In this document: positions 41,009 through 59,201 of the stretch, piece after piece | Numbering within the stretch: position 1 is the first letter of the stretch | Layout: the number at the start of each line of letters is the position of its first letter | Assembly (NCBI RefSeq): GCF_001189915.1 | Contig: NZ_LFLS01000011.1 | Span: 62,001 to 126,000, forward strand | DNA: 64,000 nucleotides | From: Herbaspirillum autotrophicum | GTDB taxonomy: Bacteria > Pseudomonadota > Gammaproteobacteria > Burkholderiales > Burkholderiaceae_D | Direction of reading: 5' to 3' | Translations under genes and position numbers: made by a program | The notes under the pieces: generated by a model | What the model saw: only the letters and a program-made list of their open reading frames with translations | What the model was told of the DNA's origin: nothing | The model's database searches: none

Positions 41009-41642
41009 TACGCCTCCCGATTCATGCTGCTGAAACCAAATCGATTTCCTTTTTTTGCAGAGAAAAATCCGCCACGCCAAAACACTTCGCTGGTTGAACA
41101 ACAAGCGTCGCGCAGTCGCTGCGCCATGACACAAGCACACTGCATTCACGTTGGAGTCACAATGAATTGAGCGGCTTTTTGTTGGCAAGAAAATAATACA
41201 ACTATATTTTTGGTTCAGTGCTAGCTACTTCTGTTGAGGGTGTTACCCAAACAAGCAACACCGGGAAGGCGAACCGAAGCGTGGCTGCCGATGAGAATTC
41301 GACACGATTGAAATTTTGAAATTTTTATTGTTCAACATGTCGATCTTTCGGACTAATCCTATATTTATTTGAGAAATGAATACTTAAAGTGGCATGCCTG
41401 ACAATTAATTGATCAGGTGTGGAGACAAAAAAAAGAAACAAGAATGCGCCGTATCGTTTTGAAAACAAGATGACTGATCGGTTGCTACCGAGAAGCGAAG
41501 CACCCCTCAACAAAGTTCATCTGGCGGCCGCAGCGCTGCTTTTCTCAACGCCTTTGCGTTACGGTGTCGCGCAGTCATCTGCTCCCGATTGAAACCATGG
41601 CGACCAGCCGATACTGAAAAGTACATTGTTTGGAGGCGGCAA
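41009..41642. other. Divergent regulatory region between tssA and the LysR gene
   Basis: About 630 bases, distinctly AT-richer than the flanking genes, with no convincing gene. It must hold the promoter of the T6SS locus (minus) and of the LysR regulator (plus). A minus-strand TATTAT/TATAGT-rich patch lies at about 41195-41215. A weak match to the RcsB-like box of the fimbrial region is at 41348. I found no sigma-54 (GG-N10-GC) promoter that stood out. Confidence 0.45.
41348..41361. promoter_or_regulatory. Weak RcsB-box-like site before the T6SS locus
   Basis: TCGGACTAATCCTA agrees with 10 of the 14 positions of the box TARGMCCRGTCCTA found around the fimbrial genes and keeps the GGAC/TCCTA arms. 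It lies 340 bases upstream of tssA and 280 bases upstream of the LysR start, so assignment is tentative. Confidence 0.3.
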
Positions 41643-44803: not shown

Positions 44804-45121
44804 CTATGCCTGCGATTTTTCTTTCTTCAATTCCGTTTTCTGTTGATTTTTCTGGCGCTGGTATTGTTGTAAAAAACCATCAGCCAGTTCGTCGATATCT
44901 GTCGGAAATGCTTCCTTGTCAACACCTTCAAAGTTCAGTTCGACGTCATAATGCTTTTCCAGCAGCAACTGGATTTCAACCATCGCCAACGAATCGAAAT
45001 GCTCGATCAAGGTATCGAATTTCTTTCCTGACAATACCAATTCCCGATCAATGCCCATATATTCGCTGACCAATGTCGCCATTTGATTTTTTACCTCATC
45101 AATTGTCAATTCCGGCTTCAT
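44804..45121 (-). CDS. Acyl carrier protein
   Basis: A 105-residue carrier protein with the phosphopantetheine attachment site FDSLAMVEIQ (Ser44) and the usual helix pattern (VKNQMATLVSEYMGID...VELNFEGVDKEAFPTDIDELADGF). The last 17 residues are a Lys/Gln/Glu-rich tail (QRQKNQQKTELKKEK) not seen in housekeeping AcpP. GGGGGGGTAATAAA precedes the ATG. First gene of the minus-strand operon with the ketosynthase and the unknown 43094 gene; sits 166 bases after the fimbrial adhesin. Confidence 0.88.
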   Translation of the reverse strand: MKPELTIDEVKNQMATLVSEYMGIDRELVLSGKKFDTLIEHFDSLAMVEIQLLLEKHYDVELNFEGVDKEAFPTDIDELADGFLQQYQRQKNQQKTELKKEKSQA

Positions 45122-45287
45122 TTTATTACCCCCCCGTAAATTAGTAACGTATCAACAACATACGCCAATCAGACTGGCTGATCGCCAGCCCTGCCATCGA
45201 TGCAGCATCTCCACAAGCATTCTTGCTTAATCCTGCAGCGAGCTCAAACTATTTTCAACTACGACTTAACCGTATCCGCACTACCCG

Positions 45288-46289
45288 CTAATTCGTTTGC
45301 AACGTAAAGGTAGCAACGGTATTTGCGCTCCCTGGCGTCACGGCTGGCCGGGTCTGAATATATTGTGCGGAAAAGCCCATACTGAAGCGTGTACCCGCCG
45401 AAATTACCGTTATGCCCGGGGTTTCAAATTGCCCCAGGTTTACCGGTGTGCCGGCCTGATGGAGCATTTGTATACCTACGCCGGTCGCCGTTGAACCACC
45501 GCCTAACGCCAGCGTACCTGCGTAACCTGAAATATCAGCCGTTCCATTGAATTGAATCAGCAGCTTTGGCGGCGCGCTGGTGCAACTCACATTCAGGTTG
45601 AATGCCTTATTCCCCTGAACCGAATTCAGGCCGGTAAACTTGTTGGTGGCGACGCTGTTCAATGAAACAACTTTGTTGACGGAATCGACATCTACGGTGC
45701 AGCCGCCGCTTTGGATATAGCCGCCATTGGAGACATATATCTGCAGTGCCTGATAGCCCGGCACGTTATCGCTGCCATACTCGCCTACGCTCAGCGGACC
45801 GGAGCCGACAGTAACTGCGGTCTTGATCAGCTCGAATTTGAACTGCCCCGGAGAGAAATACATCACTCCGCCATTGGTCGTACTGCCCGCTGTTCCGTAG
45901 GGATTGCGCCATTGTGCAGGCGCCAGAGTGACGCCATCCGAATAAGTGAGGCGATAGCCGATGCCCGCCAGGTTGGTGCGGTACACATTGGGAAAACCGG
46001 CGACCGGAGCACCGCCATTCATCGACGGCGTAAAGGTTTCCAGATCGTTGAGCTGACACGCCAGATAGTTACTCGCGTTGATGAGCGTTTTCGACGGCGC
46101 AGTTTGCGTGTATGACGCGAGGACGGCGCCTACCGGAGCCGTACCGGCACCGAACACCGTGCCAATATTGATATTGAACTGGACCTTTTTCGCGCCATAG
46201 GGGTTACCGACCAGTGAGCAAGCTGCCTGACTCTCTCCACAGATCAGGAACAATCCTGCCAATCCGAACAAAATATTCCTGATATTCAT
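45288..46289 (-). CDS. Two-domain fimbrial tip adhesin
   Basis: A 333-residue protein with a signal peptide (NILFGLAGLFLICGESQA). The first ~200 residues are a putative receptor-binding domain without recognisable ligand signature; the C-terminal ~130 residues are a pilin domain starting at the first Cys (GGCTVDVDSVNKVVSLNSV) and containing a second Cys (LNVSCTSAPPKLLIQFNGT), GVGIQMLHQAGTPVNL, and the terminal donor-strand pattern ANTVATFTLQTN. This is the FimH-like layout. The ATG at 46287-46289 follows AAGGTG. Last gene of the fimbrial operon. Confidence 0.85.
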   Translation of the reverse strand: MNIRNILFGLAGLFLICGESQAACSLVGNPYGAKKVQFNINIGTVFGAGTAPVGAVLASYTQTAPSKTLINASNYLACQLNDLETFTPSMNGGAPVAGFPNVYRTNLAGIGYRLTYSDGVTLAPAQWRNPYGTAGSTTNGGVMYFSPGQFKFELIKTAVTVGSGPLSVGEYGSDNVPGYQALQIYVSNGGYIQSGGCTVDVDSVNKVVSLNSVATNKFTGLNSVQGNKAFNLNVSCTSAPPKLLIQFNGTADISGYAGTLALGGGSTATGVGIQMLHQAGTPVNLGQFETPGITVISAGTRFSMGFSAQYIQTRPAVTPGSANTVATFTLQTN

Positions 46290-46505
46290 GTACACACCTT
46301 CATCCTGTCAATATTGCGTTTATTACGAATAAATCCGATTTTCTTTCACATGCTGCGCTGCGGCCACCTGCCTGAATATCGTATGAACATTCAACCTGGC
46401 CACCGTCTTCACCATTAGTTCTTCATCAGCGGAAGGCATCACATCCGGGCTCGCCTTCCATGCTGATCACGCCGCTCTTAAGTGAAGCAGGTGCGCTGCA
46501 TTTTT

Positions 46506-49292
46506 CTATTTGCTTAACGCCTTGCCTGCCTTGACCGCAGAGACTGCCGAAAGTGACACCACCTTCGGCGCCAACACGGTCTGCTGGCAACTGCCTTCGA
46601 TAAAACTGATGGCTGCTTGTCCTTTAACCGGCTCGGGCAATGTGTACGTCATTTGGCACTGCTGGTCAGCAGCATCACCCCACTTCACGGTCAGCACGCC
46701 GCTATCGGCAACACCCCGGACAAACGCTTTGCTGCCCTGACCAACCACACCAACCGGTTGCTGCTGTTCGTTCAACACTTCGGCGGCGAAGGGCAACGGG
46801 CTGCCATCAGGACGTGTCACCTTGAACGTGACGGCACGGCTGTTATCGGTTTCAAATTTATACATGACCACCGAACCCATACGTGGCGCGACCGTCTTGC
46901 TGGTTTCCTTGAACTGGATATCATCGGACGAACCCTTGGGATCAATCTCGATCGTATTGTTCTCATAAGGCCGCAGGTACGGTGCCACGGCATGACCGCT
47001 GCTATCGACCGTGACCCCGATCGCGCTGCTGATGCCGGCACCTTCGGCATTCGGCGCAACAATGATGCCGACGGCATCGCCCAGTGTTTGCGACAGCGAT
47101 ACGCCGCCGGGATAGGCGACGATGCCGCCGTTGGCATTGAACGAAACCTGGCTGTTATCGCCAGACCGGCTGAAGCCGACACCCAGGTTGGCGCTGCTCG
47201 CCTGATAACCCATGTTGGCATTGAAATAATTGCTGGTGCCGCCATCACCGCTGGTACGGCTGCCTGATACGCCATAGGTAACCTTGCGCGCCTCGTCCAC
47301 GGTACCGTTGACACCAACCTGCATATTGGTACTGCTGTTGGAGCCCGTATTCCGTGTCAGATAGCTATTCATCGTCGGCGCATTCGAATCTCGTCCGAGC
47401 GGAATCGACAACGACAGCATGATCCGATTGTCGCTGCGGCCACCGTTATAGCCGGCGCCATAGAACACGTTTGCCATCTGCTGTGCCTGCAACTGATCCG
47501 ACGTCATCGGCGCTGTTTGCGACAAAGTACGCTGCACCGACAGATTCCAGCTCACCCGGCCCCAATTGGCACCGTAACCTGCAGAAAAAGAGGTCTGACG
47601 ACCGAGGTTGCCGCCCCAATACTGCACCGAACTGCCAGACAGAAACAGAGAACCCGGGCCAACTGCCTGACTGATATTCAGGTCGAGCCGACTGCGCTGA
47701 CGGTTGATCTGGTTGATGTTTTCACCGCGGGCCGCCAGGCTGCGCACACTGACGGCATCGTTCAACCCCAGATAGCCGCTACTGGAAAAGCGATAAGCGC
47801 CGAGCGCGAAATTGGTGCCTGTCTCGGGAATATTTTTGTTGTATGCAATCTGAATGCTTTGCCCTTGCAAAGCACTGCTGGATTGCAATTTCGTGTTCGA
47901 AACAGCGGCGTCGACAGCAATCGCCCCGATCGGGGTGCTGACGGCGGAGCCTACCTTGAATTGCAGATAGCCTTCCGAAGCAGCAAAGCCACCATAGCCG
48001 GTGAGGAAATTGTTGATCCCCTTCTGCAAAGTACCTTGCATCACCCATGGCGTGGCATTGCTGACGCTGCTGTATTGACTGAGCTGACCTACTGCTACGC
48101 TGTATCTGATCGCACCGGGACGCAGCAATTGCGGGATTGCGGCATAAGGCACGACGAACTGACTTTGACGACCACTTGTTTCGGTCACGGTCACCAGCAA
48201 ATCGCCGCCATAACCGGTGGGGTAGAGATCGTCAATGACAAACGGACCCGGCGCCACCGTTGTTTCGTAAATGGTGTAGCCTCTCTGGCTGATGGTGACG
48301 CGGGCATTGCTCTCGGCGATGCCGCGCACTACCGGCGCGTAGCCTTGCTGTGATTGCGGCGTTTGACGATCATCGGTGGCAAGCTTGATCCCGCGCAGAC
48401 GCACGCTATCCATGATCTGCCCGTCAGTAAAACTGTCACCCAGCACCAGTTGCGATCTGAGTTCGCTGATATCGCGCTGGAGGTAGGTAGCGGTATTCTG
48501 ATAAGCCGTACGGCCTGTGATCGAACTCCAGCCTTGTGCACCTTGATGCCGCAGGCGCCAGTCGCCCAAATTGATGCCGCCGTTCAAGCCCAGATACGAT
48601 TGCGATCCGGCGTTGCCGCTGGTGGCCGCCGACGAGCTGAAGTTATAGCCGAGCAAAGCCGCAGTGACGCCGCTGTCGAGCAGAGCAGGATCGACATAGC
48701 CACGCGCGGACCGGTTCATGAAGATCTGCGGCACGGTGACGGTAAGCGTCTGTTCACCGGCGTCAAAAGACACCGTGGCGCCTGCGATCCAGATACCCAG
48801 GTCGCCGCACAGAGGACCATCAGGAATCTGATGAGCAGCCACCTCGGCTTCACTGCGGGTACCGTCGCCACGCGCAACTTTGTTCAAATCCACCCCAAAC
48901 CTGGTCAGCATGGCGCGATCAAAACAGGGCATCGCGCTTTCCTGATTTGGCAAGTTTTTGAACACAATATCATTCATGCCCTGCCAGCCTTGATTGACGG
49001 AGACGCCAACGCGATAAATGCCAGGCAACACGATATTGGCTTTATCGAACCGAGACAAATCCGCCTGTTCATTCATGCCGGGTGCAAAGGATCCGGCGTC
49101 GAATTGCATCGCCGCCAGCGAGAATGGTTTGGCAGGTGCCGCCACGGCTGTACTTGTTTGAAAGAGCAGGCCCGAGAACATGCCGGAAATCAGCATGCTG
49201 AGCAAGCGCGGCTGCAATTCAAAAAATACGCCTGCCTCGACATGGCGACCAATAGGATTGCGTTGCAAAAAATGTAGCGATCTGTTCATCAT
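46506..49292 (-). CDS. Fimbrial outer-membrane usher (FimD/PapC family)
   Basis: About 928 residues. After a long basic leader the signal sequence (SMLISGMFSGLLFQTSTAVA) precedes the usher N-terminal domain (FDAGSFAPGMNEQADLSRFDKANIVLPGIYRVGVSVN), the 24-strand barrel and plug, and C-terminal domains ending in SFIEGSCQ. Signature segments such as PGPFVIDDLYPTGYGGDLLVTVTE and RGYTIYETTVAPGPF are present. It assembles subunits delivered by the chaperone. Start chosen at the ATG 49290-49292 (the next ATG is directly after); the ribosome-binding site is weak. Located between chaperone and adhesin genes. Confidence 0.93.
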   Translation of the reverse strand: MMNRSLHFLQRNPIGRHVEAGVFFELQPRLLSMLISGMFSGLLFQTSTAVAAPAKPFSLAAMQFDAGSFAPGMNEQADLSRFDKANIVLPGIYRVGVSVNQGWQGMNDIVFKNLPNQESAMPCFDRAMLTRFGVDLNKVARGDGTRSEAEVAAHQIPDGPLCGDLGIWIAGATVSFDAGEQTLTVTVPQIFMNRSARGYVDPALLDSGVTAALLGYNFSSSAATSGNAGSQSYLGLNGGINLGDWRLRHQGAQGWSSITGRTAYQNTATYLQRDISELRSQLVLGDSFTDGQIMDSVRLRGIKLATDDRQTPQSQQGYAPVVRGIAESNARVTISQRGYTIYETTVAPGPFVIDDLYPTGYGGDLLVTVTETSGRQSQFVVPYAAIPQLLRPGAIRYSVAVGQLSQYSSVSNATPWVMQGTLQKGINNFLTGYGGFAASEGYLQFKVGSAVSTPIGAIAVDAAVSNTKLQSSSALQGQSIQIAYNKNIPETGTNFALGAYRFSSSGYLGLNDAVSVRSLAARGENINQINRQRSRLDLNISQAVGPGSLFLSGSSVQYWGGNLGRQTSFSAGYGANWGRVSWNLSVQRTLSQTAPMTSDQLQAQQMANVFYGAGYNGGRSDNRIMLSLSIPLGRDSNAPTMNSYLTRNTGSNSSTNMQVGVNGTVDEARKVTYGVSGSRTSGDGGTSNYFNANMGYQASSANLGVGFSRSGDNSQVSFNANGGIVAYPGGVSLSQTLGDAVGIIVAPNAEGAGISSAIGVTVDSSGHAVAPYLRPYENNTIEIDPKGSSDDIQFKETSKTVAPRMGSVVMYKFETDNSRAVTFKVTRPDGSPLPFAAEVLNEQQQPVGVVGQGSKAFVRGVADSGVLTVKWGDAADQQCQMTYTLPEPVKGQAAISFIEGSCQQTVLAPKVVSLSAVSAVKAGKALSK

Positions 49293-49412
49293 TATTTCGA
49301 AATTGAAAACGCAAGTCCAAATGCCTGCTAAAAAGCATGGACACAATGTCAGCGTGGAAAGTCAGACGAGGCGGGATCCTGCAATCCCGGCATGGGATAC
49401 TTGAAATCCGTT

Positions 49413-50159
49413 TTACTGCTCAGCCAACGGAGCGGTCAATGGAACAAACGCGCCATAGTCATCAACGATGGAAAACGCGACGTGCGCTCCGGGGCCTGGC
49501 GCAGCAGGAGCATTTTTCAGCGAATAATGCTGTACACCGCCTGGCTCGACCATCGTGTAGTCGTCACTCTTGATTTGCTTATCGCCCACGGCCAGCGCCA
49601 CACTTTGGAACGAGATGTAATACGGCGTAGGATTGCGCACTTGCAACGCTTGGCCGCCGTCCGCTTTTACCAGACGCCACTCAAGCAGCCCAGGCGCGTT
49701 GTCTGGCTTGATCGCCAAATTGGCCGGACGGAAAAATATCTTGGTGCGCAGACGGAATGCAAAGCGCAACTGGTTATCTTCTTCGCCTCCCACTCTGGGA
49801 GGAACTTCCAGCACATTGAGCCAGAACAAGGTTTCTTTATCGGTGGCCAGCGGCTCTTTGGTATAAACCATGCGCATGACCTGGCTCTTGCCAGACTCGA
49901 CACGAAAAACAGGTGGAGTCAGAATGAACGGCACATTGCTTTTTTCAGCGCTGAGTTTTTCATCCCCGGTATCGATCCACGCCTGGACCAGACGGGGAAA
50001 CTGAGCATCGTCATTGGTCAGCTTGATGCTCACTTCACGCTGTTGCGCGGGGTACACCACGCGTGTACCAGATAACATAATGCCGGCGTGAGCAGACAGC
50101 GACAGCAAGCTCGCAAAACTCAAAACCAACAAGGCAAAGCACCATTTCAAGTAGCGCAT
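49413..50159 (-). CDS. Periplasmic fimbrial chaperone (FimC/PapD family)
   Basis: A 248-residue chaperone with signal peptide (RYLKWCFALLVLSFASLLSLSAHA). The PapD-like N-terminal domain starts GIMLSGTRVVYPAQQREVSIKLTND and has the conserved TPPVFRVESGKSQVMRMVY and ETLFWLNVLEVPP strands, and the second domain PTPYYISFQSVAL. It donates a strand to subunits and takes them to the usher. The ATG at 50157-50159 has AAAGAGAAAAAA before it. Between the pilin and usher genes. Confidence 0.93.
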   Translation of the reverse strand: MRYLKWCFALLVLSFASLLSLSAHAGIMLSGTRVVYPAQQREVSIKLTNDDAQFPRLVQAWIDTGDEKLSAEKSNVPFILTPPVFRVESGKSQVMRMVYTKEPLATDKETLFWLNVLEVPPRVGGEEDNQLRFAFRLRTKIFFRPANLAIKPDNAPGLLEWRLVKADGGQALQVRNPTPYYISFQSVALAVGDKQIKSDDYTMVEPGGVQHYSLKNAPAAPGPGAHVAFSIVDDYGAFVPLTAPLAEQ

Positions 50160-50294
50160 TTTTTTCTCTTTGTAAAACCGGATTCGAACAGCAACTGTAT
50201 TCAATCCTTGCAAATTCCGTCCTGCCACATGGCAGGACGGAAGGCTTCAATCGCTCTGCTTCATTGCGATTTAAGTCTGATCAGATTTAACCAA

Positions 50295-50852
50295 TCAGTT
50301 AAACGCGATCGAGTACTGAACGTTGCTGTTGACAGTACCTGCAGTAGCGGCGCCAGTAGCGAAGTACTGAGCCGAAAATGGCAGCACTGCTGTGTTGTTC
50401 GCAATCACGACCGGAGTCGACGATGTGTTGGTGAACAGGTTGATAGGAGCATTGGCTGCACCCGCATCGGCGATTTGCACTTGAACGTTGGTGGCGGTGC
50501 TACCGGCAGCCAGATTCAGGTTGCCGCTGGCAGCATCAACCAGTGGGCTGGATGCTTCGAAATGTACGGAAGCGCGGGTTCCATCGGTGCAGCCAGTGTC
50601 GCCAGGACCGCCAACAACGATATTGAAACCGGTAGAACCAGCAACAGCACCTTGGCTAGCCAGCGCAGTAGTCGACAGTGTTGGCAGCGACACTGTGAAG
50701 TCGCCGTTTGCCGCGCCAGCGGAACCGCCGTGCACAGCGCAAGTAACCGAAGTCAGCTGACCATTGAAAGTAATTGTGCCGTCAGCTGCCTGAGCCGAGC
50801 CTGCAAAGCCGATAGTTGCCAACAACGAGATGATGAGTGCTTGCTTTTTCAT
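50295..50852 (-). CDS. Major type 1 fimbrial subunit (FimA-like pilin)
   Basis: A 185-residue pilin: signal peptide (MKKQALIISLLATIGFAGSAQA), mature start ADGTITFNGQLTSVTCAVHGG with the first pilin Cys, a second Cys (GDTGCTDGTRA), and the terminal donor strand AGTVNSNVQYSIAFN ending in a penultimate aromatic. It forms the fimbrial shaft. The ATG at 50850-50852 follows TAGGAATCTTAAA. First gene of the operon pilin-chaperone-usher-adhesin; an RcsB-box-like site lies about 115 bases upstream. Confidence 0.92.
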   Translation of the reverse strand: MKKQALIISLLATIGFAGSAQAADGTITFNGQLTSVTCAVHGGSAGAANGDFTVSLPTLSTTALASQGAVAGSTGFNIVVGGPGDTGCTDGTRASVHFEASSPLVDAASGNLNLAAGSTATNVQVQIADAGAANAPINLFTNTSSTPVVIANNTAVLPFSAQYFATGAATAGTVNSNVQYSIAFN

Positions 50853-51586
50853 TTTAAGATTCCTAGAGATTGACGTTACCTTCTCCGCAGGTGCGGAAGA
50901 AGGGAGGAGCGCCCAGTAATTTGTTGAGCTAGCGACAGAATATTCGCCAGCAAAATCTCCGGAAATAGGCCTGGTCCTAAAATGAAGGAATTTGTGCAAT
51001 TGACAACAAGTTGTTGAAAAAACACCACTCATTCACACGGATTTTCCATGAAAATTTCCCGTTTTTTGAACACGAACAGACTGATGAACGTCAGCAGCAG
51101 ATCGACTTGACGGAAGCAGCATCGCCGAGTGAGATTGCACCGTGGCACATTGTTGTCCGTCAACTTGGATGACGAACATTTTCGACAGGCATGATGTCTC
51201 CCCCGCAGGCACTGCATGCCCCGTGAAAGATGGTTGTTTTTCGAAGAATTCAAGTCCGGGGCAATCAGGCTGACCGCAACAGACGACGACAGCACAATGG
51301 GTGACGGATGCATTATTGATGGCAGTCGCGCGGCGACGCCGCCCCCGGGCCGCATTACATCATTGCGGCCCCGACGCTGAGGACCGGACGCCAGCGCAAA
51401 GGAACATTCCGGCACAAGAAATGATTGACGCGCCGATATGCCCGGCCATCCGGATAGCTTTTACATTCGCCTCGACAGCACTGCTCCATCAGCCATCTCA
51501 TCCCGCTACAGCCGGAGAACTTGCATGCACCCGGCAGAAGTGCCCGGCATAACGGGAAGGGGCAAGGCCGCTTGAATTGACTGCGA
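50853..51586. other. Leader of the fimbrial operon and gap to the response-regulator gene
   Basis: About 730 bases without a supported gene. The proximal part contains the box at 50966, a perfect odd palindrome CAACAA-G-TTGTTG (51004-51016), and on the minus strand a possible -10 TATTCT near 50941. The distal part (51050-51580) shows only short frames with no family signal. Confidence 0.45.
50966..50979 (-). promoter_or_regulatory. RcsB-box-like site upstream of fimA
   Basis: Minus-strand TAGGACCAGGCCTA, a nearly perfect palindrome followed by TTTCCGG. It is one of four closely related 14-mers around the fimbrial and phosphorelay genes. Located 115 bases before the pilin start and about 25 bases upstream of a possible -10 element, a position fitting an activator. 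Confidence 0.55.
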
Positions 51587-52288
51587 CTACTTCGTGGTGT
51601 CTTCAGCCGCATCAAAAGCCCGAGACATCGGCGACGATGTCACAAACCCGTTTTCCATCGCATATCTGATGAGATCCACATCCTGCTTGACCCCCAGTTT
51701 TTCCATCGCCTTGGTTTTTTGCGTGCTGATAGTCTTCTTGCTTCTGTTGAGCTGCTCGGCAATTTCATTGACCGTCAGCCCTGAAGCATAAAGACGCACT
51801 ACTTCCGATTCGCGCTGGGTCAGCGCACTGGCGACGACATCACCATTGCGCTTGCGGTCAATCAATTCATTAATATTATTTATCGTGGGAGAAAAGTAAT
51901 TCCCTCCCGTGTGCGCTGCATAAATCGCAGGAACCAAATAGGAAACGGCATCCGACTTGCTGGTGATGCACGAAATACCGAGCGCCAGAAGTGAGCGCAG
52001 CAAGGCCGGGCTGTCGAGCATGGTCAACACCACGATCTTCATCATCGGATAGCGTCGTTGAATAAATGAAAACAAGGCAATGCCATCGCCGTATTCGCCA
52101 CCGGGCATAGAGTAGTCTGAAATCAAGACATCACATTGATTCTTTTCCAGAAATGCAATCAGCTCCGTTGAATTGCGTGCACTGCCAACCACTTTCAGAT
52201 TGATTACGCTCGACAATTCCTGCTCGATACCGATAATCACAGCCGGATGATCGTCGACGATGACCACGCGAATCGAAAAATTATCCAT
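51587..52288 (-). CDS. RcsB-like response regulator (NarL/FixJ family)
   Basis: A 233-residue regulator. The receiver domain has the acidic pair Asp12-Asp13 (VVIVDDHPAV), phospho-acceptor Asp58 (LISDYSMPGG) and Lys in ITSKSD. The C-terminal LuxR-type helix-turn-helix reads LTQRESEVVRLYASGLTVNEIAEQLNRSKKTISTQKTKAM, strikingly like enterobacterial RcsB (EIAKKLNRSIKTISSQK). The ATG at 52286-52288 follows AAGGAAATCTGCA. It is co-oriented with the hybrid kinase upstream and with the fimbrial operon downstream, so it is the probable output protein controlling fimbriae. RcsB-box-like sites lie in the surrounding leaders. Confidence 0.92.
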   Translation of the reverse strand: MDNFSIRVVIVDDHPAVIIGIEQELSSVINLKVVGSARNSTELIAFLEKNQCDVLISDYSMPGGEYGDGIALFSFIQRRYPMMKIVVLTMLDSPALLRSLLALGISCITSKSDAVSYLVPAIYAAHTGGNYFSPTINNINELIDRKRNGDVVASALTQRESEVVRLYASGLTVNEIAEQLNRSKKTISTQKTKAMEKLGVKQDVDLIRYAMENGFVTSSPMSRAFDAAEDTTK

Positions 52289-52396
52289 TGCAGATTTCCT
52301 TGTATTCTTTTGCAACGAGAATTAAGACATCACACCACTGGCAGTATGTCTCCGCCAATAATCATGCCACGAATTAACGATGGGTTGAAGCCTGCG

Positions 52397-52560
52397 ACTG
52401 CTGACTGGCAACTCATCGTCAACGTCGCCCGATACCCCTCCTCCCTGCGGTCACTGCCGGCCGGGTCTGAGTACAACGCGCGGTCAACGGGATACTCAAC
52501 GTTCCGTTGGCAGTGGCAGCAAGCGTGCATTTATTCTTGTTTCCAGCCACCTTCGTGTCC
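52397..52560 (-). pseudogene. Decayed C-terminal end of a fimbrial subunit gene
   Basis: On the minus strand one frame reads ATANGTLSIPLTARCTQTRP followed by AVTAG, the usual end of type 1 fimbrial subunits, and then, after a +1 frameshift near 52430, ATLTMSCQ, the equivalent of the terminal donor strand (A-T-F-T-L-S-Y-Q). The stop expected after the final Gln is lost. Upstream (52560-52950) no signal peptide or pilin cysteine pattern can be followed, so only the 3' end is recognisable. Confidence 0.5.
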
Positions 52561-52993
52561 GGACCACCTTTCGAATGCAACCTGCGCCAAGTCCGGCGGC
52601 ACAAATCCGCGCAATGGTTCGGCTGGCGGCCGCAATGACTGGCGCGCAATTTTTTTGGGGTGGACATGAGTACCGGTTCCGGCAAAGCGTTTCGCCATGG
52701 GTTCATCATCAACAATGACGGCAAAGCTGTGTCCACGGAATACCAAAGAAAATTCCAGACCTGATTCAATGTGCAAACCACGTCATGCCAGCTCCATCAA
52801 GTCGCTTGCAGAGATGAAAGCGTATTTGCCCCCTCCGAACAGTGAGGGCGGTACATCTTATCGATAAACCAATGCGTATTGAATGCAGGAATTCGCAGTA
52901 AAACGTTCCTGAGAATGGATGGAATCTGTGCCTCGCTGTCCAGCTTCCTCAGCGCAAAGAACCAGACCGGACCGTTCCGACCCAACCAAAACA

Positions 52994-53073
52994 ATTATAT
53001 TTATAGCAACTTTCCATAAGAATCAGCCAAAGCCGTAATCGGCAAAAAAATGCATAAGCCCAGTCCTATTTCC
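52994..53073 (+). repeat. Direct repeat copy 1 of an 80-bp leader segment
   Basis: Starts ATTATATTT-A-TAGCAAC and ends GCATAAGCCCAGTCCTATTT. It aligns over about 80 bp with 57530-57609 at roughly 75% identity by eye, sharing TAGCAAC, AATCAGCC, AGCCG, AATGCATA and GTCCTATTT. The other copy precedes an orphan pilin gene; this one precedes no intact plus-strand gene. Confidence 0.65.
53055..53068 (+). promoter_or_regulatory. RcsB-box-like site in leader copy 1
   Basis: TAAGCCCAGTCCTA followed by TTTCC, within the duplicated leader between the kinase and regulator genes. It agrees with the shared box at all 14 positions of TARGMCCRGTCCTA. Confidence 0.5.
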
Positions 53074-53156
53074 ATGTCGATATCTCTCCACTCTGCGCCA
53101 AAGGATGCCGCAATCGGTTCTTCTTGCCACAGGACCTATGTGCCCTCTCCCGTCTG

Positions 53157-56100
53157 CTATTGTGCGGTCTGTTCCAGAACGCACAATACTTCATCCAGCA
53201 TCGCGTCAAATTTCGGCACGCTTTCAGTCAATGCCGCAACATCTGCCGTACTGGCAAGATGTTCCATGCGCCGGCAAACGGCAACCACGGCAGTTTCACC
53301 GATCATCGCAAATACGCCTTTGATTGAATGCAACTGCTCTTGCATCTGAGCAAAATCATTGGTGGCCAGCGCGCGATAAATCATTGCGATCGAATCAGTA
53401 TTGGTAACGCGCATTGTTTGCAACAATGCCTTGCTCAGCACCGGCTTGCTCAAATTCGGCGAATGAAAGGACGCCGTCCCGCCGCCGCAATGCTTGCGCA
53501 CCATCTGATCAATTTGCGCCAGCGACATCGGCTTGAGCAACACATCGGTAATACCGATCTGCTTGCAACGCTGGCGTTCTTCCGGTCCCGCGTGCGCGGT
53601 GATGGCAATGATCGGCAACCTGGTACCGCGCCGCCGTAACGATGTGGTCAGCATATAGCCATCCATACCCGACATGTTCAAATCGGTAAACACCATGTCA
53701 TATTGATTTTTCTCAAACAACGCCAAGGCAGCCTGACCGCTGTTGGCCAAATCTGCCGGGTAGCCCAGGGTTGCAAATTGATCGTGGATCAACGCCAGAT
53801 TGATTTTGTGGTCCTCCACCACAAGTGTTCTGACGGCCGGTATCGCAAAGGCGTTTGTTTCAGTTGGCTGGCCCGGTGCAGCATCAGCCGCGCCCTCCTC
53901 CGGCACCAGGGCCAGTGCGATTGCATTACGCAAACCATCAAGGCAATAACATGACAGCGCGGTACGTCTGCCCCGAGTAACCGCTTTTCTCGGACCATCC
54001 TCCGCCACATCGATCACCCACGATGCTTTATCACAGGCCAGATTTTCGTCGGCAAAACTCCAGCTGCGTGATCCACCGAAAATCAGCAGGGGCAATGCCA
54101 TTGCCGGCATCTCTGCCGGATCACTGATCAGGTTGACTTGTATACCCCAGTACCGTAGCTGCTCACCGATAAACTCGCACCACTCCGGCGCGGAACACAG
54201 CAGAACCACCGTCGGGAAATCGGGAAAAGCATTGTGCAACTTCTGCACATTGCCGGCCAATTGTAAAGGCAGGCGAATGGTAAAAATACTGCCGGCAGCA
54301 TCGCTTACATCGAGTGCAATAGTGCCGCCCATCAGCTCAATCAACCGTTTGCATAACGCCAGGCCAAGACCGGTGCCGCCAAACCGGCGACTAATCGATG
54401 TGTCGCCTTGAATGAAAGGCTGAAACAAAGCCAAGCGCTGCGGCGCGGTAATGCCAATGCCCGAATCACTGACACTGATCGTCAACACCGGCGGCCCACT
54501 GCCGCCGGCAAGACTACTGGCCCAGATAGTCACCTTGCCACTTTCGGTAAACTTGATCGCATTGCTCAGCAGATTCAGCAACACCTGACGCAAGCGGGCC
54601 GGATCACCGCGATAGTGACGCGGCATATCCGGCGGCATCGTGTAAAACAGTCCCAAGCCCTTGGCGTCGGCCAGCGGTGCAAATACCAGTGCCACCTGTT
54701 CAATGACATCCAGCACGTCAAAGTCGATATTCTCGATCGTCATTTGTCCGGATTCTGCTTTCGAAAAATCCAGGATGTCGTTGATGATGGTAAGCAGCGC
54801 TTTCGATGAAGAACTTACCGTGCGCAGGCGATCCGCTTGCAGCTCTGTCAGTTCGGTACGCTCCAGCAACTCCAGATTGCCGAGGATGGCGTTGAGCGGG
54901 GTCCTTATTTCATGACTCATGGTCGCCAGAAACGACGACTTCGTCTGGCTTGCAATGTCTGCCGCAATACGCGCTTCTTCCAATTTTCTCTCCAATAGCT
55001 TGCGCGTGGTAATGTTGGAAACACTACACAACAGAACATCCTCACTTTGATACTTGGTCTCCACCAGATTGACCAACAGATGCGACTCGGTACCATCTGC
55101 GGCCGTGATGGCAAGATCCTGCTCGATAAACCGATTGCCGCGCCGGTTGCCTGCTCCTCCCAGATTGCGCCAATACAAATTGAGAAATTTCCCCTGAAGT
55201 GATATGGCTTCATCGTCATAGGAACGCATCACATCATTCTTCAATAATGTATCCCCCTTGACCGACAGCAAACTCAAACCCACGGGGGCAGTAGCAATAA
55301 TGGTCCGGCTCAGTTCTTCGCTCTCGAACACACGCTGTGAATGGCGGTAGGTCGGCATGAATACCTTCCGATCGAACGACCACAAGAACCCCCAAAGTAC
55401 GCTGAGCATGATCAAGGACCCGCCGCCGTATGCAAGCAAGATCGGCCAGCGCGCTGCCAATATGGTGCGCCACGAATAGGTGTAAGCGAAGATCCAACCG
55501 GTATCCGACAACGGTTCGCTGAACGTGAAATCGCCCGCTTCGTAGTAGTGGTCAGAAGATTGCAGATTTTTTTTCCAGCTTTGGGAGGCAAGGACGCGCC
55601 GGGGCAGATCATGATCGACAGACTGGTCTCCCCGCACGCTCAATATTTGCCTGCCCTGACTGTCGAGAATCAAAAAATTCCCGTCATAATCGCCATCATT
55701 CAAGACATCCGATAATGCATTGCTTCCCAGGCTGCTCACAAACACAATAAAAGCGTGTCCCTCATCAAATGCAGGGATCACCAATCTGAACATTTTTTCT
55801 CCGGTGAACAGGTCGTCCCATGCAGGCAACCAGATAATGCGTCTGGATTCATGAAATTTTCTGGCAATCACGGGATCGCGAAAATTCCCTATATCCGGCG
55901 CCAGCCGCCGGATCAGACCTGAGACATCTTCGCCAGCGGCGAGGTTGACCAAGTCATTGGGCGGGGGTGGCGCGATGGTAATGAAGGTGTGATCGAGATT
56001 GTAGAAAAAAATACTGACAGGCATGCGTCGCGCCTGGACACTGGCGCTGAGGGTATACGCCAGCTCCCCGGCCAGCGCCAGATAGTCGGCATAGACATTG

Positions 56101-56465
56101 ACCGGACATTTTCCTTTGGCCTCGCCCAGCGACAATTGCGGCAGTACCTTGCTGTTGATCTGGATGACCGCCCGGCAGCCCTGAGAAGAAAAATCATTGA
56201 GCAGCGTTTGCTTCGGCCGGCGGCGGTCTGACCATAGCATTTCCGCATTGATCACGCCGCGGCGCAGTGCCGCCTGCTTAGTCTCGATCACGAGCAACAG
56301 CAACGCCTTGTGCCGCAAATAGACAGAACGCCCCTCGCCGATGTAATCCTTGATGCTGGACCAGATCGCCAGCACGCTGGCGGCGACAATCATGACCGAC
56401 AAAGCCAACCCGCCGCCCCACAACAACCAGCGCTGATAGCGTCTGAACAAAGCGATTCTGTGCAT
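53157..56465 (-). CDS. Hybrid sensor histidine kinase with receiver and Hpt domains (RcsC/BvgS-like)
   Basis: A 1102-residue phosphorelay kinase. Two membrane spans (about 13-33 and 335-360) enclose a ~300-residue periplasmic sensor domain; a PAS-like region (about 385-495) leads into HisKA with phospho-acceptor His518 (ATMSHEIRTPLNAIL), HATPase (LLNLLSNAIKFTESG, DSGIGI, GGTGLGLALCKRLIELMGG), an RcsC ABL- or pseudo-receiver-like segment (about 745-840), a receiver domain with Asp928 (VFTDLNMSGMDGYML) and a C-terminal Hpt domain with His1046 (QLHSIKGVFAMIG). All four relay residues are therefore in one protein plus the RcsB-like regulator. Signal unknown. Its leader holds an RcsB-box-like site. 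Confidence 0.93.
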   Translation of the reverse strand: MHRIALFRRYQRWLLWGGGLALSVMIVAASVLAIWSSIKDYIGEGRSVYLRHKALLLLVIETKQAALRRGVINAEMLWSDRRRPKQTLLNDFSSQGCRAVIQINSKVLPQLSLGEAKGKCPVNVYADYLALAGELAYTLSASVQARRMPVSIFFYNLDHTFITIAPPPPNDLVNLAAGEDVSGLIRRLAPDIGNFRDPVIARKFHESRRIIWLPAWDDLFTGEKMFRLVIPAFDEGHAFIVFVSSLGSNALSDVLNDGDYDGNFLILDSQGRQILSVRGDQSVDHDLPRRVLASQSWKKNLQSSDHYYEAGDFTFSEPLSDTGWIFAYTYSWRTILAARWPILLAYGGGSLIMLSVLWGFLWSFDRKVFMPTYRHSQRVFESEELSRTIIATAPVGLSLLSVKGDTLLKNDVMRSYDDEAISLQGKFLNLYWRNLGGAGNRRGNRFIEQDLAITAADGTESHLLVNLVETKYQSEDVLLCSVSNITTRKLLERKLEEARIAADIASQTKSSFLATMSHEIRTPLNAILGNLELLERTELTELQADRLRTVSSSSKALLTIINDILDFSKAESGQMTIENIDFDVLDVIEQVALVFAPLADAKGLGLFYTMPPDMPRHYRGDPARLRQVLLNLLSNAIKFTESGKVTIWASSLAGGSGPPVLTISVSDSGIGITAPQRLALFQPFIQGDTSISRRFGGTGLGLALCKRLIELMGGTIALDVSDAAGSIFTIRLPLQLAGNVQKLHNAFPDFPTVVLLCSAPEWCEFIGEQLRYWGIQVNLISDPAEMPAMALPLLIFGGSRSWSFADENLACDKASWVIDVAEDGPRKAVTRGRRTALSCYCLDGLRNAIALALVPEEGAADAAPGQPTETNAFAIPAVRTLVVEDHKINLALIHDQFATLGYPADLANSGQAALALFEKNQYDMVFTDLNMSGMDGYMLTTSLRRRGTRLPIIAITAHAGPEERQRCKQIGITDVLLKPMSLAQIDQMVRKHCGGGTASFHSPNLSKPVLSKALLQTMRVTNTDSIAMIYRALATNDFAQMQEQLHSIKGVFAMIGETAVVAVCRRMEHLASTADVAALTESVPKFDAMLDEVLCVLEQTAQ

Positions 56466-56565
56466 GTTTTACCGATTCAATAATGCAGCGGTTCTGAACA
56501 AGGCGCCCGGTTGTTTGACAAAAGCGCAATACATCGAAAGAGAATTGTGTATTTCGCCCCGTGTT

Positions 56566-56579
56566 TCAGACCAGTCCTA
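56566..56579. promoter_or_regulatory. RcsB-box-like site upstream of the hybrid kinase gene
   Basis: TCAGACCAGTCCTA, 101 bases upstream of the kinase start (minus) and 86 bases upstream of a small plus-strand gene. It differs from the shared box only at the second position; suggests autoregulation of the phosphorelay. Confidence 0.45.
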
Positions 56580-56664
56580 TTGCTGCAAAGAATATTTCAA
56601 TTTAAATTCGACTCAACGCGAAAGTGTTATCGGCACAAGAATACAAAAAGATAGAAATATTAAG

Positions 56665-56850
56665 ATGAAACAGGATAATTCAACAAAAGCCGCACAGCTT
56701 CTGCTCGGCTATGCACGCCTCTCAAACACTGAAGCCATACATTTCACAAAAGGCATGAATCAGTTCATTTTTGCATCGCCGTCGCAAAAACGACAAATGA
56801 TGGAATGCTGGAAACAGCAAGGACAAGCATTGCCCGACGAACAACGGTGA
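56665..56850 (+). CDS. Small unknown protein (61 residues)
   Basis: ATG at 56665, soluble, charged, without signal peptide (MKQDNSTKAAQLLLGYARL at the start, QKRQMMECWKQQG near the end). It is divergent from the hybrid kinase and has an AT-rich leader, but no strong ribosome-binding site, so it may be real or spurious. Function unknown. Confidence 0.45.
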   Translation: MKQDNSTKAAQLLLGYARLSNTEAIHFTKGMNQFIFASPSQKRQMMECWKQQGQALPDEQR

Positions 56851-56989
56851 TCATCAGGCATAACGGATTTTTACTCAACGACAGAATGATTTTTTCCAAA
56901 TCTGTAAAACATGAGCATGAAACACAACCAATCGACGATTTTATATGAGCGCACTAATAAAATTATCGCCGGCACGCGTACTGTTGTTT

Positions 56990-57343
56990 TCAGATATCGT
57001 GCCCATGGAGAATCCCCAGGTGATCCGTACGGCGCCGCGATTGCATGTTCAAATTTGATTTTTTGCAGCTTTCGGTAAAAGCGAAGTCTCGGGCAACTAT
57101 ATTTTGCAAATCCAGATAAATCAACAAAATGGCGTCTTTTTCAATCATGCCGGGAGAGGTCAGCATGCGCTCATCAAGAATGCGTTTTGCCTGTGCCTCA
57201 TTGCCGTCGCACATATCGACAACAAACGACCATTGACGCTCTTGCGGAGACTGCTGCAGAAACTCCTGCCGGTGACTCAGAAATTTATATAGAAAGCAGA
57301 ACACAATCAAAAGAAAGACCAGGCCGGGAATAGCATTATTCAT
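56990..57343 (-). CDS. Small inner-membrane protein of unknown function
   Basis: A 117-residue protein with one N-terminal membrane span (MNNAIPGLVFLLIVFCFLYKF) and a cytoplasmic part with two probable helices (SFVVDMCDGNEAQAKRILDE, then EKDAILLIYLDLQNIVARDF). ATG at 57341-57343 preceded by AAGGGTG at a suitable distance. No family recognised. It lies between the kinase and the orphan pilin gene, so it may belong to the same regulatory or fimbrial region. Confidence 0.6.
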   Translation of the reverse strand: MNNAIPGLVFLLIVFCFLYKFLSHRQEFLQQSPQERQWSFVVDMCDGNEAQAKRILDERMLTSPGMIEKDAILLIYLDLQNIVARDFAFTESCKKSNLNMQSRRRTDHLGILHGHDI

Positions 57344-57529
57344 TATCAACACCCTTGATTAAACTGACTTGACAGACAACCGGCCTCAGATGCCGATACC
57401 AACAATTTATTTCTGCCGTTAAGTAATTGAACCAGCCGTAGCAACAATGAAATCACGAGGGAAAACCGTATATCAATTTGACATCCCCTGTTTCCAGCTT
57501 GACCGCCAGACCTCGACACCACTGAAATG

Positions 57530-57609
57530 ATTATATTTTTAGCAACCCGCCAAGGAAATCAGCCCGAGCCGCAATTGATGCGCGAATGCATAGGCCCGGT
57601 CCTATTTGC
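57530..57609 (+). repeat. Direct repeat copy 2 of the 80-bp leader segment
   Basis: Begins ATTATATTTTTAGCAAC and ends GCATAGGCCCGGTCCTATTT; homologous to 52994-53073. It lies about 230 bases upstream of the pilin-like gene at 57836 and probably contains its control region. Confidence 0.65.
57591..57604 (+). promoter_or_regulatory. RcsB-box-like site upstream of the orphan pilin gene
   Basis: TAGGCCCGGTCCTA, a close palindrome followed by TTTG, within leader copy 2. Same 14-mer family as the sites at 50966, 53055 and 56566. Confidence 0.55.
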
Positions 57610-57835
57610 GTATGGCGGCACATGAAGCAAGGATGAAAACACTGTTCAAATAACTGATATCGGGAAAGGAGGCACATCGCTTCAGGCAGACACGCATATA
57701 ACTACAGACAACGGCCTCGGGTCAGCGAGGTTTTTCTTTGGTTGAAGTCCGGCATCCAATTTTTAGGCAACACATCACATGCGTGAACAGATCGCGCATT
57801 TACCGCAAGGTGCTCACCCCTGGGAAGGAAAAATA

Positions 57836-58228
57836 ATGACAACTGCAACAACAGCATGGAAGACAATTTCAGCAGGCTTTGCTCTGCTTTCTATCGCAAC
57901 AGCGACAATGGCAAGTCCGGTTGGCGGCATCGCTTACTTTAGCGGGAAGATTGTTGAACCACCGTGCTCAGCGACACTAAACCAGATCGCAACACCCGCG
58001 AACCAGGTGAGTATCAATTGCACCCGACCGAGCGCATTTGCAGTGTCCTTCCAATCCGTTGCGAGGTCAGTAGCAGGCTCCGCTGCAAGTCTGGCAACGC
58101 AGGAAACCAGCAAGCCGGTTCGCTACAGCACTGGAATACGGGAGCAACGTTCGGTCAACATCCCCTCGACTTCTTCGAATGCCCGCAGCAGTCTGCTCTT
58201 GACGACAATCACGATCACCTATCAATGA
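57836..58228 (+). CDS. Short orphan fimbrial (pilin-like) protein
   Basis: A 130-residue exported protein: signal peptide (WKTISAGFALLSIATATMA), mature start SPVGGIAYFSGKIVEPPCSA with the first pilin Cys, a second Cys (VSINCTRP), and the terminal strand LLLTTITITYQ with the penultimate Tyr typical of chaperone-bound pilins. The mature length (~105) is well below the usual ~150, so the middle is missing; it may be an anchor/terminator-type subunit or a reduced pilin. ATG at 57836 follows AAGGAAAAATA. Divergent from neighbours; a candidate client of the chaperone-usher system 7 kb away. Confidence 0.75.
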   Translation: MTTATTAWKTISAGFALLSIATATMASPVGGIAYFSGKIVEPPCSATLNQIATPANQVSINCTRPSAFAVSFQSVARSVAGSAASLATQETSKPVRYSTGIREQRSVNIPSTSSNARSSLLLTTITITYQ

Positions 58229-58553
58229 TGCTGCAATTAAAACGACAGGACGCCTACGGGGGGGCGAAGACATCCTGCCGCCAGTCTGAAAAGTTATCAG
58301 CCGATGCAGACTGGAGATGCCATTCTACGAAGCGGGGATGACGGGAGCCATCAGACCAGTCTGAAAACGATGACATTATTGCAAACCGGGCTGGCAGTAC
58401 CCCGGTGCTTGCAGAACCGCCGTGTCTGATGGATCCCTTGTCGGGCGAACGCCGCACGCGATCATCAGTGCCTTCACATCCGGGGACGCGCAGATCTGCA
58501 CGAATACGCCAATGGCAAATCATCACTTCGAAGCAAGTGGGATCAGTAAACGG
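58229..58553. other. Non-coding stretch after the orphan pilin gene
   Basis: Moderately GC-rich, with short frames on both strands but no supported gene. It leads to the terminator at 58554, so it may be the 3' untranslated region of the pilin transcript or hold an undetected gene remnant. Confidence 0.3.
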
Positions 58554-58592
58554 AAAAACGGCTCGGATACTGAGTATCTGAGCCGTTTTTTA
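58554..58592 (+). terminator. Intrinsic terminator downstream of the orphan pilin gene
   Basis: AAACGGCTC (58556-58564) pairs with GAGCCGTTT (58580-58588), with an inner ATAC/GTAT pair, followed by a TTTTTT run ending the stem. Confidence 0.85.
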
Positions 58593-58777
58593 CAAAGCTG
58601 AACCGGCTATCGATCAGAAAGGCAGTGCACATAAGAACGACCACATCTCCAGCCAACCTTTTCTAACCGATTGAATTTAATTGGTTTTTTTAAAAATCAA
58701 AAACTCCACAGCCGTTTTCTGTAAAGTTACTGAGCATTTTCAGCCATTTTTTCGATGCTTCTGCCATCTGGCCAAAA

Positions 58778-58805
58778 AAACTGTAAAGCAGGATCTTTAC
58801 AGTTT
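58778..58805. repeat. Inverted repeat with 11-bp perfect arms
   Basis: AAACTGTAAAG, loop CAGGAT, CTTTACAGTTT. CTGTAAAG occurs a third time at 58720 as a direct copy. Could be a terminator-like hairpin or a protein-binding site; function not assigned. Confidence 0.6.
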
Positions 58806-59201
58806 CGTCAAGAAAACGGCGGTGCAATTACTTATGCCGCGAACGCGAAAAAATAGCTTAACACTCGACGAACCGTTTCTCTTTCGCAAATCCACTCCTG
58901 TTTTTGCCGATATTCAAATTTCGCTACGCCATTTCCGAAAGCGGCAGTATCCGGTTCGATAAGTTACAAGCCAACTCTCTATTTTCTTGAGCTTGCTCAT
59001 TTCAAAAATCACCAAAATAATATTTCCATATTACTGTTAGGCTTAAAAGTCATTTTCAACTTTAGCTCGGCTCGACCCTTAATTGTGGAAACGAATTGAT
59101 AATGACGCCAATTTTGTTGACGAGTAAGTTACTTATCTATATGATTTCACTTACCACTCATGCCTTGTGTCGTCATTAGGTTGGCCTCGCTTGGGAAGGA
59201 G

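What the first reader, a model, noticed from the sequence alone, without database searches (positions are those of the whole stretch)
50966..57604. A shared RcsB-box-like 14-mer links an RcsB/RcsC-like phosphorelay to fimbriae
Four 14-mers fit TARGMCCRGTCCTA: TAGGACCAGGCCTA (50966, minus) before fimA, TAAGCCCAGTCCTA (53055) between the kinase and regulator genes, TCAGACCAGTCCTA (56566) before the hybrid kinase, TAGGCCCGGTCCTA (57591) before the orphan pilin gene. All are near-palindromes, mostly followed by TTT. Enterobacterial RcsB boxes are also 14 bp with TAAG...TCCTA-type arms, and the regulator here has an RcsB-like recognition helix (NEIAEQLNRSKKTISTQK). The spatial pattern suggests a private regulon: fimbriae, autoregulation, orphan pilin. 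That such a box is used by a betaproteobacterial RcsB-like protein is inference.
Basis: partly seen in the sequence, partly recalled or inferred. Interest (0 to 1): 0.75.

Follow-up and report, generated by a model that had tools for sequence, protein, structure and literature searches.

The report
RcsB-like operator shared by fimbriae, injectisomes
A short repeated DNA signal next to a set of fimbria genes is very probably the landing site of a neighbouring RcsB-like switch protein, and in related bacteria the same signal, at the same distance from the gene start, sits before injection-needle genes instead.

Summary
The four 14-mers exist and are not chance: the genome's three exact matches to their consensus (TAGGACYRGKCYTA, gene strand) all lie in this 6.6-kb cluster. 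A matrix from the four sites, applied to nine sister-species promoters chosen by a different element, peaks at one fixed distance in eight and one base off in the ninth. A matrix from those species ranks the window sites 1, 3, 8 and 10 of 63,987 positions. The box centre lies 30 bp before the -10 hexamer (about -42), or 62 bp with a second box between. Box-only scans find this register in 6 of 8 sites of two further species (four of the six already seen). The regulator is closest to RcsB; Lys or Gln at RcsB position 180 goes with G or G/T at half-site base 4. Corrections: the 57591 promoter points away from the orphan pilin; 56566 fits a small divergent gene better than the kinase; the regulon is not private, since sister species carry the box before SPI-1-type type III secretion genes. 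Binding is inferred, not shown.

The parts
50966..50979 (-). Box of the fimA promoter, TAGGACCAGGCCTA
   Evidence: -10 TATTCT in register
50937..50942 (-). -10 hexamer TATTCT, 30 bp from the box centre (fimA)
   Evidence: the transcription start itself is inferred
50295..50852 (-). fimA-like major pilin (start at MKKQAL, my choice of start)
   Evidence: Pfam FimA 1.7e-10 on the longer frame 50295-51032
49413..50228 (-). PapD-type chaperone
46506..49346 (-). usher
45288..46295 (-). tip adhesin with MrkD-like receptor domain
51587..52288 (-). RcsB-like response regulator (receiver + LuxR-type DNA-binding domain)
   Evidence: on the frame 51587-52315; the start ATG at 52288 is inferred
53055..53068 (-). 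Upstream box of a tandem-box promoter, TAGGACTGGGCTTA
   Evidence: best hit in the window for a model trained on relatives
53023..53036 (-). Degenerate second box, ACGGCTTTGGCTGA, 32 bp downstream
52994..52999 (-). -10 TATAAT of that promoter
53157..56465 (-). Unorthodox sensor kinase: HisKA, HATPase, receiver, Hpt
   Evidence: best NCBIfam model RcsC, 427.7 bits, below its cut-off of 920
56566..56579 (+). Box TCAGACCAGTCCTA (minus: TAGGACTGGTCTGA) between the kinase and the small divergent gene
56603..56608 (+). -10 TAAATT, 30 bp from the box centre, toward the small gene
56665..56850 (+). orfP, 61-aa conserved small protein; homologues found in the same clusters as this regulator's relatives
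57591..57604 (-). Upstream box of the second tandem-box promoter, TAGGACCGGGCCTA
57559..57572 (-). Degenerate second box, GCGGCTCGGGCTGA
57530..57535 (-). -10 TATAAT of that promoter
56990..57343 (-). orfM, 117-aa protein of unknown function with relatives (best match per genome 27-36% identical) in 6 other genomes of the genus
57779..58228 (+). orphan pilin-like gene; no box promoter in register points to it
   Evidence: (no Pfam match)
41348..41361 (+). Additional box TCGGACTAATCCTA with TAAAGT in register, between a type VI secretion gene (ImpA_N) and a LysR-type gene
58351..58364 (-). Additional box TCAGACTGGTCTGA with TAGAAT in register, downstream of the orphan pilin

Best explanation
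The 14-mer is the operator of the RcsB-like response regulator encoded at 51587-52288, which the unorthodox kinase at 53157-56465 most likely phosphorylates. A regulator dimer binds the palindrome TAGGAC-NN-GTCCTA. At fimA and at the small gene orfP the box is centred about -42 from the transcription start, overlapping the -35 region, where a bound activator can touch RNA polymerase (class II activation). At 53055 and 57591 the good box sits one further step (32 bp, about three helical turns) upstream, with a degenerate second box at -42. The regulator would thereby switch on the fimbriae, orfP, the orfM transcript and a long leader toward its own gene. In sister species the same box in the same register stands before pilin genes, an EAL gene, a chemoreceptor gene and genes of an SPI-1-type type III secretion system. 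Shown: sequence, register, conservation, gene neighbourhoods. Inferred: binding, activation rather than repression, kinase-regulator pairing.
For: Clustering: 4 of the 5 places at up to 1 mismatch in 6.0 Mb lie in 6.6 kb. Independent element: in 9 promoters picked by TCTNGTCAGAT-N22-TACACT alone (0-1 mismatch), the window matrix peaks 35 bp upstream in 8 (rank 1 of 98 offsets) and 34 bp upstream in the ninth. Reverse: a matrix from those nine boxes (the ninth taken one base over) ranks the four sites 1, 3, 8, 10 of 63,987; a tandem-box model from eight relatives has 53055(-) and 57591(-) as its two best hits on both strands. Register: TANNNT at +37 or +69 in 4 of 4 window boxes and in L056, against 48 of 2,340 non-coding positions; among the 60 best window hits, 6 of the top 10 against 0 of the other 50; in 16 of 16 other own-genome near matches read (L005-L021 without L009, which is 41348) it is absent. 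Box-only scan of six genomes: 6 of 8 places in G016 and G026 in register, 0 of 2 in G015 and G018, no place in G020 and G001. Regulator: RcsB closest. Residue-base link: boxes of Lys180-type genomes have G at half-site base 4 in both arms in 10 of 10, Gln180-type in 1 of 11; among the first six positions only this one splits the groups so.
Against: No binding or expression data. The kinase side of 56566 has no -10 in register. The 53055 promoter lies about 700 nt upstream of the regulator with no recognised gene between, and a hairpin-plus-T site stands at its very start (terminator-like sites in the region, 12, are no commoner than in shuffles, 10.3). The same scan, which needs a -35, lists none of these promoters. 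Two G020 stretches, its SPI-1 region (L098, 16 kb) and the one around its 36% relative (L099, 12 kb), and the second-copy loci L057-L059 show no box in register, nor do the orfP genes of L053-L055 (threshold 7.5 bits). G000 and G023 have the regulator but no tandem promoter at up to 1 mismatch, and G020 has one without a close regulator. G016 and G026 were put into after boxes had been seen there; of the 4 places new in those genomes, 2 are in register. In G016 and G026 I assigned the boxes to regulators of 35-38% identity not beside the secretion genes. The Lys/Gln comparison covers 3 against 5 related genomes, so boxes are not independent; one G020 box was left out (regulator unknown), second boxes of tandem promoters were left out except that of L091, and the later sites were not used (their pattern fixes that base).
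Confidence: 0.78

Rival explanations
1. The box is read by a different regulator (another NarL/LuxR-type or AraC-type protein), and the RcsB-like protein is only a neighbour.
For: The own genome has 13 matches to the regulator query. InvF-like and LysR-type regulator genes lie near some sites. G020 has the tandem promoter before its EAL-like gene but no close copy of the regulator.
Against: The base-4 split follows the regulator's contact residue. Of the 5 genomes of the genus with the tandem promoter at up to 1 mismatch, 4 have a regulator copy of 47-60% identity, against 2 (G000, with the regulator itself, and G023) of the other 29. The arms resemble RcsAB boxes.
Confidence: 0.13
2. The sites are relics of a duplicated stretch of DNA (a spread repeat), without a regulatory role.
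For: 53055 and 57591 are copies with similarity for 75-100 bases from the box.
Against: 50966 and 56566 share no obvious flanks with them (inspection). Box and register recur in other genomes before unrelated genes.
Confidence: 0.03
3. The regulator binds the box but represses, so that the phosphorelay switches the fimbriae off.
For: Rcs boxes can mediate repression: an RcsB box in the -10/-35 region represses gadA (PMC5651002, passages).
Against: In the in-register sites the box is centred at about -42 or -74, typical activator positions, not over the -10. The tandem promoters I looked at have no consensus -35 (inspection).
Confidence: 0.15

Closest known systems
RcsB and the RcsAB/RcsB box of Enterobacteriaceae
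   Same: Best structure match RcsB; 14-bp near-palindrome with TARGA-N4-TCYTA arms; Lys at the position of K180; DNA-backbone contacts R177, T181, S183, Q185 and K186 kept (alignment, contacts from PMC5829831 passages).
   Different: Below the NCBIfam RcsB cut-off (186.9 against 235). Box core C-NN-G instead of ATAT. Thr instead of Ser184; T169 and K187 changed. The kinase beside it carries its own Hpt domain, so no separate RcsD is needed. Linked to fimbriae and injectisomes.
RcsCB/PvrSR control of cupD fimbriae in Pseudomonas aeruginosa PA14 (PMC2696094, PMC3842833; passages read)
   Same: RcsB-like regulator and RcsC with Hpt domain beside a chaperone-usher cluster; a putative RcsB site about 75 bp before cupD1 whose GAA is needed for promoter function; EAL protein in the same network.
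   Different: No strict -42 register or tandem boxes in the passages read; here related species carry the same box before type III secretion genes, and a small gene (orfP) travels with the regulator.
SsrA/SsrB of Salmonella (recalled; that NCBIfam models PRK15369/PRK15347 stand for SsrB/SsrA is recalled too)
   Same: NarL-family regulator with unorthodox kinase governing type III secretion genes.
   Different: The window regulator scores 103.9 bits with that model against 186.9 with RcsB. The relatives' secretion system is of the SPI-1 type (PrgH, InvF-like).
RocS1-RocA1-RocR / BvgAS-type phosphorelays (recalled)
   Same: Unorthodox kinase plus LuxR-type regulator controlling fimbriae.
   Different: Not compared by sequence here.

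Membership tests
RcsB | Full-length similarity to RcsB above other NarL-family regulators | tested here: met
   PDB RcsB 7.5e-46, best other protein VraR 2.8e-17
RcsB | NCBIfam RcsB equivalog cut-off (235 bits) | tested here: not met
   186.9 bits; so RcsB-like, not filed as RcsB
RcsB | Base-contacting residues K180 and S184 | tested here: inconclusive
   Lys kept, Ser replaced by Thr in the window protein; relatives of 47-60% that were aligned have Gln and Ser or Thr; G015, G016, G026 have Lys and Asn (contacts from PMC5829831)
RcsC-RcsD-RcsB phosphorelay | Separate Hpt protein RcsD between RcsC and RcsB | not tested
   The kinase beside the regulator carries its own Hpt domain, unlike RcsC/RcsD; a genome search for RcsD, RcsF or IgaA was not made
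RcsAB box | Five most conserved bases T1 A3 G4 T10 C11 of TaAGaatatTCcta | tested here: inconclusive
   All five in 53055 and 56566 (plus strand), four in 50966 and 57591 (by eye; consensus from PMC4325325)
Class II activator operator | Site centred near -42, fixed distance to -10 | tested here: met
   Box centre to -10 of 30 bp in fimA, orfP, 41348, 58351, L056 and 6 of 8 places of G016/G026; start sites not mapped, so -42 is inferred
RcsCB-cupD type fimbrial control | Adjacent regulator activates the fimbrial promoter | not testable with these tools
   Only position and sequence; needs expression data

The most novel reading that the evidence does not exclude
One RcsB-like regulator family, with its unorthodox kinase and a small protein of its own (orfP), forms a portable switch in this genus. 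It keeps one operator and one promoter geometry but is plugged into different surface machines: chaperone-usher fimbriae in two genomes without PrgH, and the SPI-1-type injectisome in others. Its DNA code has drifted in step with one residue: Lys at RcsB position 180 demands G at half-site base 4, Gln allows T.
Probability: 0.5. Interest if true: 0.72.

Novelty: new variant of a known kind. Interest (0 to 1): 0.55.

Why it matters
It gives an RcsB-like phosphorelay, in a genus I could not name (nearest named relative of the regulator: Achromobacter, 48%), a defined operator, a promoter geometry and a testable gene set, from sequence alone. It offers a natural case of a transcription switch changing its output between fimbriae and an injectisome while keeping its operator, and a natural residue-base pair for testing how NarL/LuxR-type regulators change DNA specificity. 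It also names an uncharacterised small protein that travels with this regulator.

Tried and rejected
Chance: rejected by shuffles, leave-one-out, genome scan and cross-species tests. Private regulon: rejected, since the box recurs before other genes in related genomes. Orphan pilin as target of 57591: rejected by orientation. Small RNA from 53055 or 57591: no Rfam match at gathering scores in 45000-59000, and the similarity of the two copies fades 75-100 bases from the box. A decayed copy of orfM downstream of 53055: considered, but no Pfam match for 52797-52994 and 52531-52776 and no clear alignment beyond the promoter. The tandem promoter outside the genus: 4 matches at up to 1 mismatch in 358 other genomes of the family, against 6 for the reversed pattern in all 392, so background. 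Achromobacter L064: no box found. Fold of orfP: three helices, mean pLDDT 82, no solved relative at E 0.001. Controls that do not help: at up to 2 mismatches the tandem pattern is near its reversed control (22 against 18 matches in 34 genomes), so only the 9 hits at 0-1 mismatch were used, plus L091 (2 mismatches) where named; TMRGACYRRTCYKA in the own genome is no commoner than its control (7 against 8 strand matches), only its placing is notable (3 of 5 places in this window; the other two without register). In one search the strand counts against control were 6 to 2 (G016), 4 to 2 (G026), 1 to 1 (G015), 0 to 4 (G020), 0 to 5 (G001), 1 to 6 (G018). Loci were delivered for 21 places and read 17 of them; the other places were not read. 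Genus and species were not identified.
Full report
OBSERVATION. The four 14-mers are real. On the gene strand they read TAGGACCAGGCCTA (50966), TAGGACTGGGCTTA (53055), TAGGACTGGTCTGA (56566) and TAGGACCGGGCCTA (57591). With their consensus, the 6.0-Mb own genome gives three exact places, all here; the 1-mismatch places are 56566 and one place on another contig (C5:82801) that lies in a long reading frame and has no -10 in register. Leave-one-out matrices find no equal elsewhere in the window.

SETTING. The region holds a chaperone-usher cluster (FimA-like pilin, PapD-type chaperone, usher, MrkD-like adhesin), a response regulator and a sensor kinase with HisKA, HATPase, receiver and Hpt domains. 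The regulator is closest to RcsB (PDB 7.5e-46; best other protein 2.8e-17) but below the NCBIfam RcsB cut-off; the kinase is closest to RcsC, also below cut-off.

RELATIVES. Proteins 47-60% identical to the regulator occur in five of 33 other genomes of the genus: G002, G004, G005, G009 and G023 (61 genomes in all). In G002 copies lie beside chaperone-usher genes; in G004, G005, G009 and G023 a copy lies in a type III secretion cluster. Families were tested for L054 (PrgH, needle, SctJ, OrgB) and L056 (InvF-like, SctC), and PrgH for all four; the rest is my reading of frames. PrgH occurs in 7 of 34 genomes of the genus and not in G000 or G002, the two with the fimbrial version. A small protein, orfP (61 aa at 56665-56850), has relatives in G002, G004, G005 and G009 (34 genomes, query from G009) and G023, in the same clusters; in the window it lies beside the kinase, and in G005 I found no start codon for it.

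PROMOTER GEOMETRY. Reading the relatives' promoters by eye showed box - 21 bp - TTCTNGTCAGAT - 22 bp - TACACT. A search of 34 genomes for TCTNGTCAGAT-N22-TACACT gave 22 matches: 5 with 0, 4 with 1 and 13 with 2 mismatches (the reversed control gave 18 at up to 2). The five exact matches are at regulator loci: sctD (prgH) promoters of G004, G005 and G009, and two pilin promoters of G002. The four 1-mismatch matches are a third pilin promoter of G002, an EAL gene in G002 (Pfam) and its look-alike in G020 (by eye), and a PAS/MCP chemoreceptor gene in G002. In these nine, chosen without the box, the window-derived matrix peaks at -35 from TTCT in eight and at -34 in the ninth; mean 6.75 at -35 against -14.6 (sd 2.8) at other offsets. 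The element is itself a second, degenerate box, so the promoters carry two boxes 32 bp apart, the nearer centred 30 bp before the -10, about -42.

REVERSE TESTS. A matrix from the nine relatives ranks the window sites 1, 3, 8 and 10 of 63,987 positions. A tandem model from eight relatives gives 53055(-) (14.5) and 57591(-) (10.1) as the best two window hits on both strands; the next is 2.7; the single-box sites 50966 and 56566 score low there (-19.4; -3.8 and -9.3), as they must if they lack the second box. The -10 register (TANNNT at +37 or +69 from the box start, distances taken from the relatives) holds in 4 of 4 window boxes and the L056 box, against 48 of 2,340 non-coding positions. Among the 60 best window hits it holds for 6 of the top 10 and 0 of the rest (Fisher 4.2e-6; four of the six are the sites under test). 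The two new ones are 41348, between a type VI secretion gene and a LysR-type gene, and 58351. Of 17 other near matches in the own genome read for this, only the one that is 41348 has the register.

WIDER TEST. Scanning six genomes of the genus for TAGGACNNGTCYKA, with no -10 in the pattern, gave ten places. In G016 and G026, which carry PrgH and a regulator 35-38% identical, 6 of 8 have the -10 at +37; in G015 and G018, 0 of 2; G020 and G001 had none. G016 and G026 were included because four of these places had turned up, by matrix and without regard to the -10, in their secretion regions; of the four new places two are in register. Two of the six stand 0.7-0.9 kb before the prgH frame; that they serve its operon is inferred. 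Of the seven PrgH genomes, six have in-register boxes in the stretch examined, G020 not (the boxes of L053-L056 were among those used for its matrix).

WHO READS THE BOX. E. coli RcsB contacts bases with K180 and S184 only, at A, G and A of the half-site TTAGGAA (PMC5829831, passages read). The window regulator and those of G015, G016 and G026 have Lys at that place; those of G002, G004, G005, G009 and G023 have Gln. Half-site base 4, which by my numbering is the contacted G, is G in 20 of 20 arms of Lys-type boxes (six own, two each of G016 and G026) but G in 10 and T in 12 of 22 arms of Gln-type boxes; both arms G in 10 of 10 against 1 of 11 boxes. The paper's passage does not say which of the two residues touches that G. 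The genomes are related and few, and the G016/G026 assignment is mine, so this is suggestive.

57591 and 53055 are copies of one tandem promoter reading minus: the first toward orfM, a 117-aa protein with relatives in six other genomes of the genus, the second toward the regulator through about 700 nt without recognised gene. The orphan pilin has no promoter of this type pointing at it. 56566 fits orfP (TAAATT in register) better than the kinase. The orfP homologues of L056 (box 10808) and L052 (box 8377) also have a box in register; those of L053-L055 do not.

KNOWN OR NEW. RcsCB control of cupD fimbriae in P. aeruginosa PA14, with a putative RcsB site before cupD1, is the nearest known system (PMC2696094, PMC3842833; passages read). 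In my searches (listings, and passages of seven papers) I saw no description of this box, register or fimbria/injectisome exchange; the library is partial. I file it as a new variant of a known kind.

Noticed in passing
window 56665-56850: orfP, a 61-aa predicted three-helix protein; its longer frame and a relative have no Pfam match. Found in six genomes of the genus, each time in the cluster of this regulator; possible partner or connector of the RcsB-like protein.
   Followed up: partly
window 41348-41361: In-register box between a type VI secretion operon (ImpA_N, VipA, VipB genes) and a LysR-type gene; the regulator may reach type VI secretion through the LysR gene.
   Followed up: partly
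window 58351-58364: Almost perfect palindrome TCAGACCAGTCTGA with TAGAAT in register on the minus side, downstream of the orphan pilin; its transcript would run antisense to that gene.
   Followed up: partly
window 52965-52987: GC-rich hairpin followed by a T-rich stretch right after the expected start of the 53055 transcript; could be an early terminator.
   Followed up: no
L052:15851-18350: Three tandem pilin genes, each with its own tandem-box promoter, before the chaperone gene in G002.
   Followed up: partly
L086, L074, L088: The same promoter stands before an EAL-domain gene in G002 (and a look-alike gene in G020) and before a PAS/MCP chemoreceptor gene in G002, suggesting c-di-GMP and chemotaxis links.
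   Followed up: partly
L114:1501 and L116:1501: Two boxes in different genomes share much of the sequence after the -10 (TAACATTCA...TTAAGAATRTCTTCAGCCA...), hinting at a further conserved regulon member.
   Followed up: no
L057, L058: Second regulator copies (47-50% identical) in G009 and G004 lie next to a gene for a large protein with an ATP-binding motif (MalT-like by my reading) and show no box in register.
   Followed up: no
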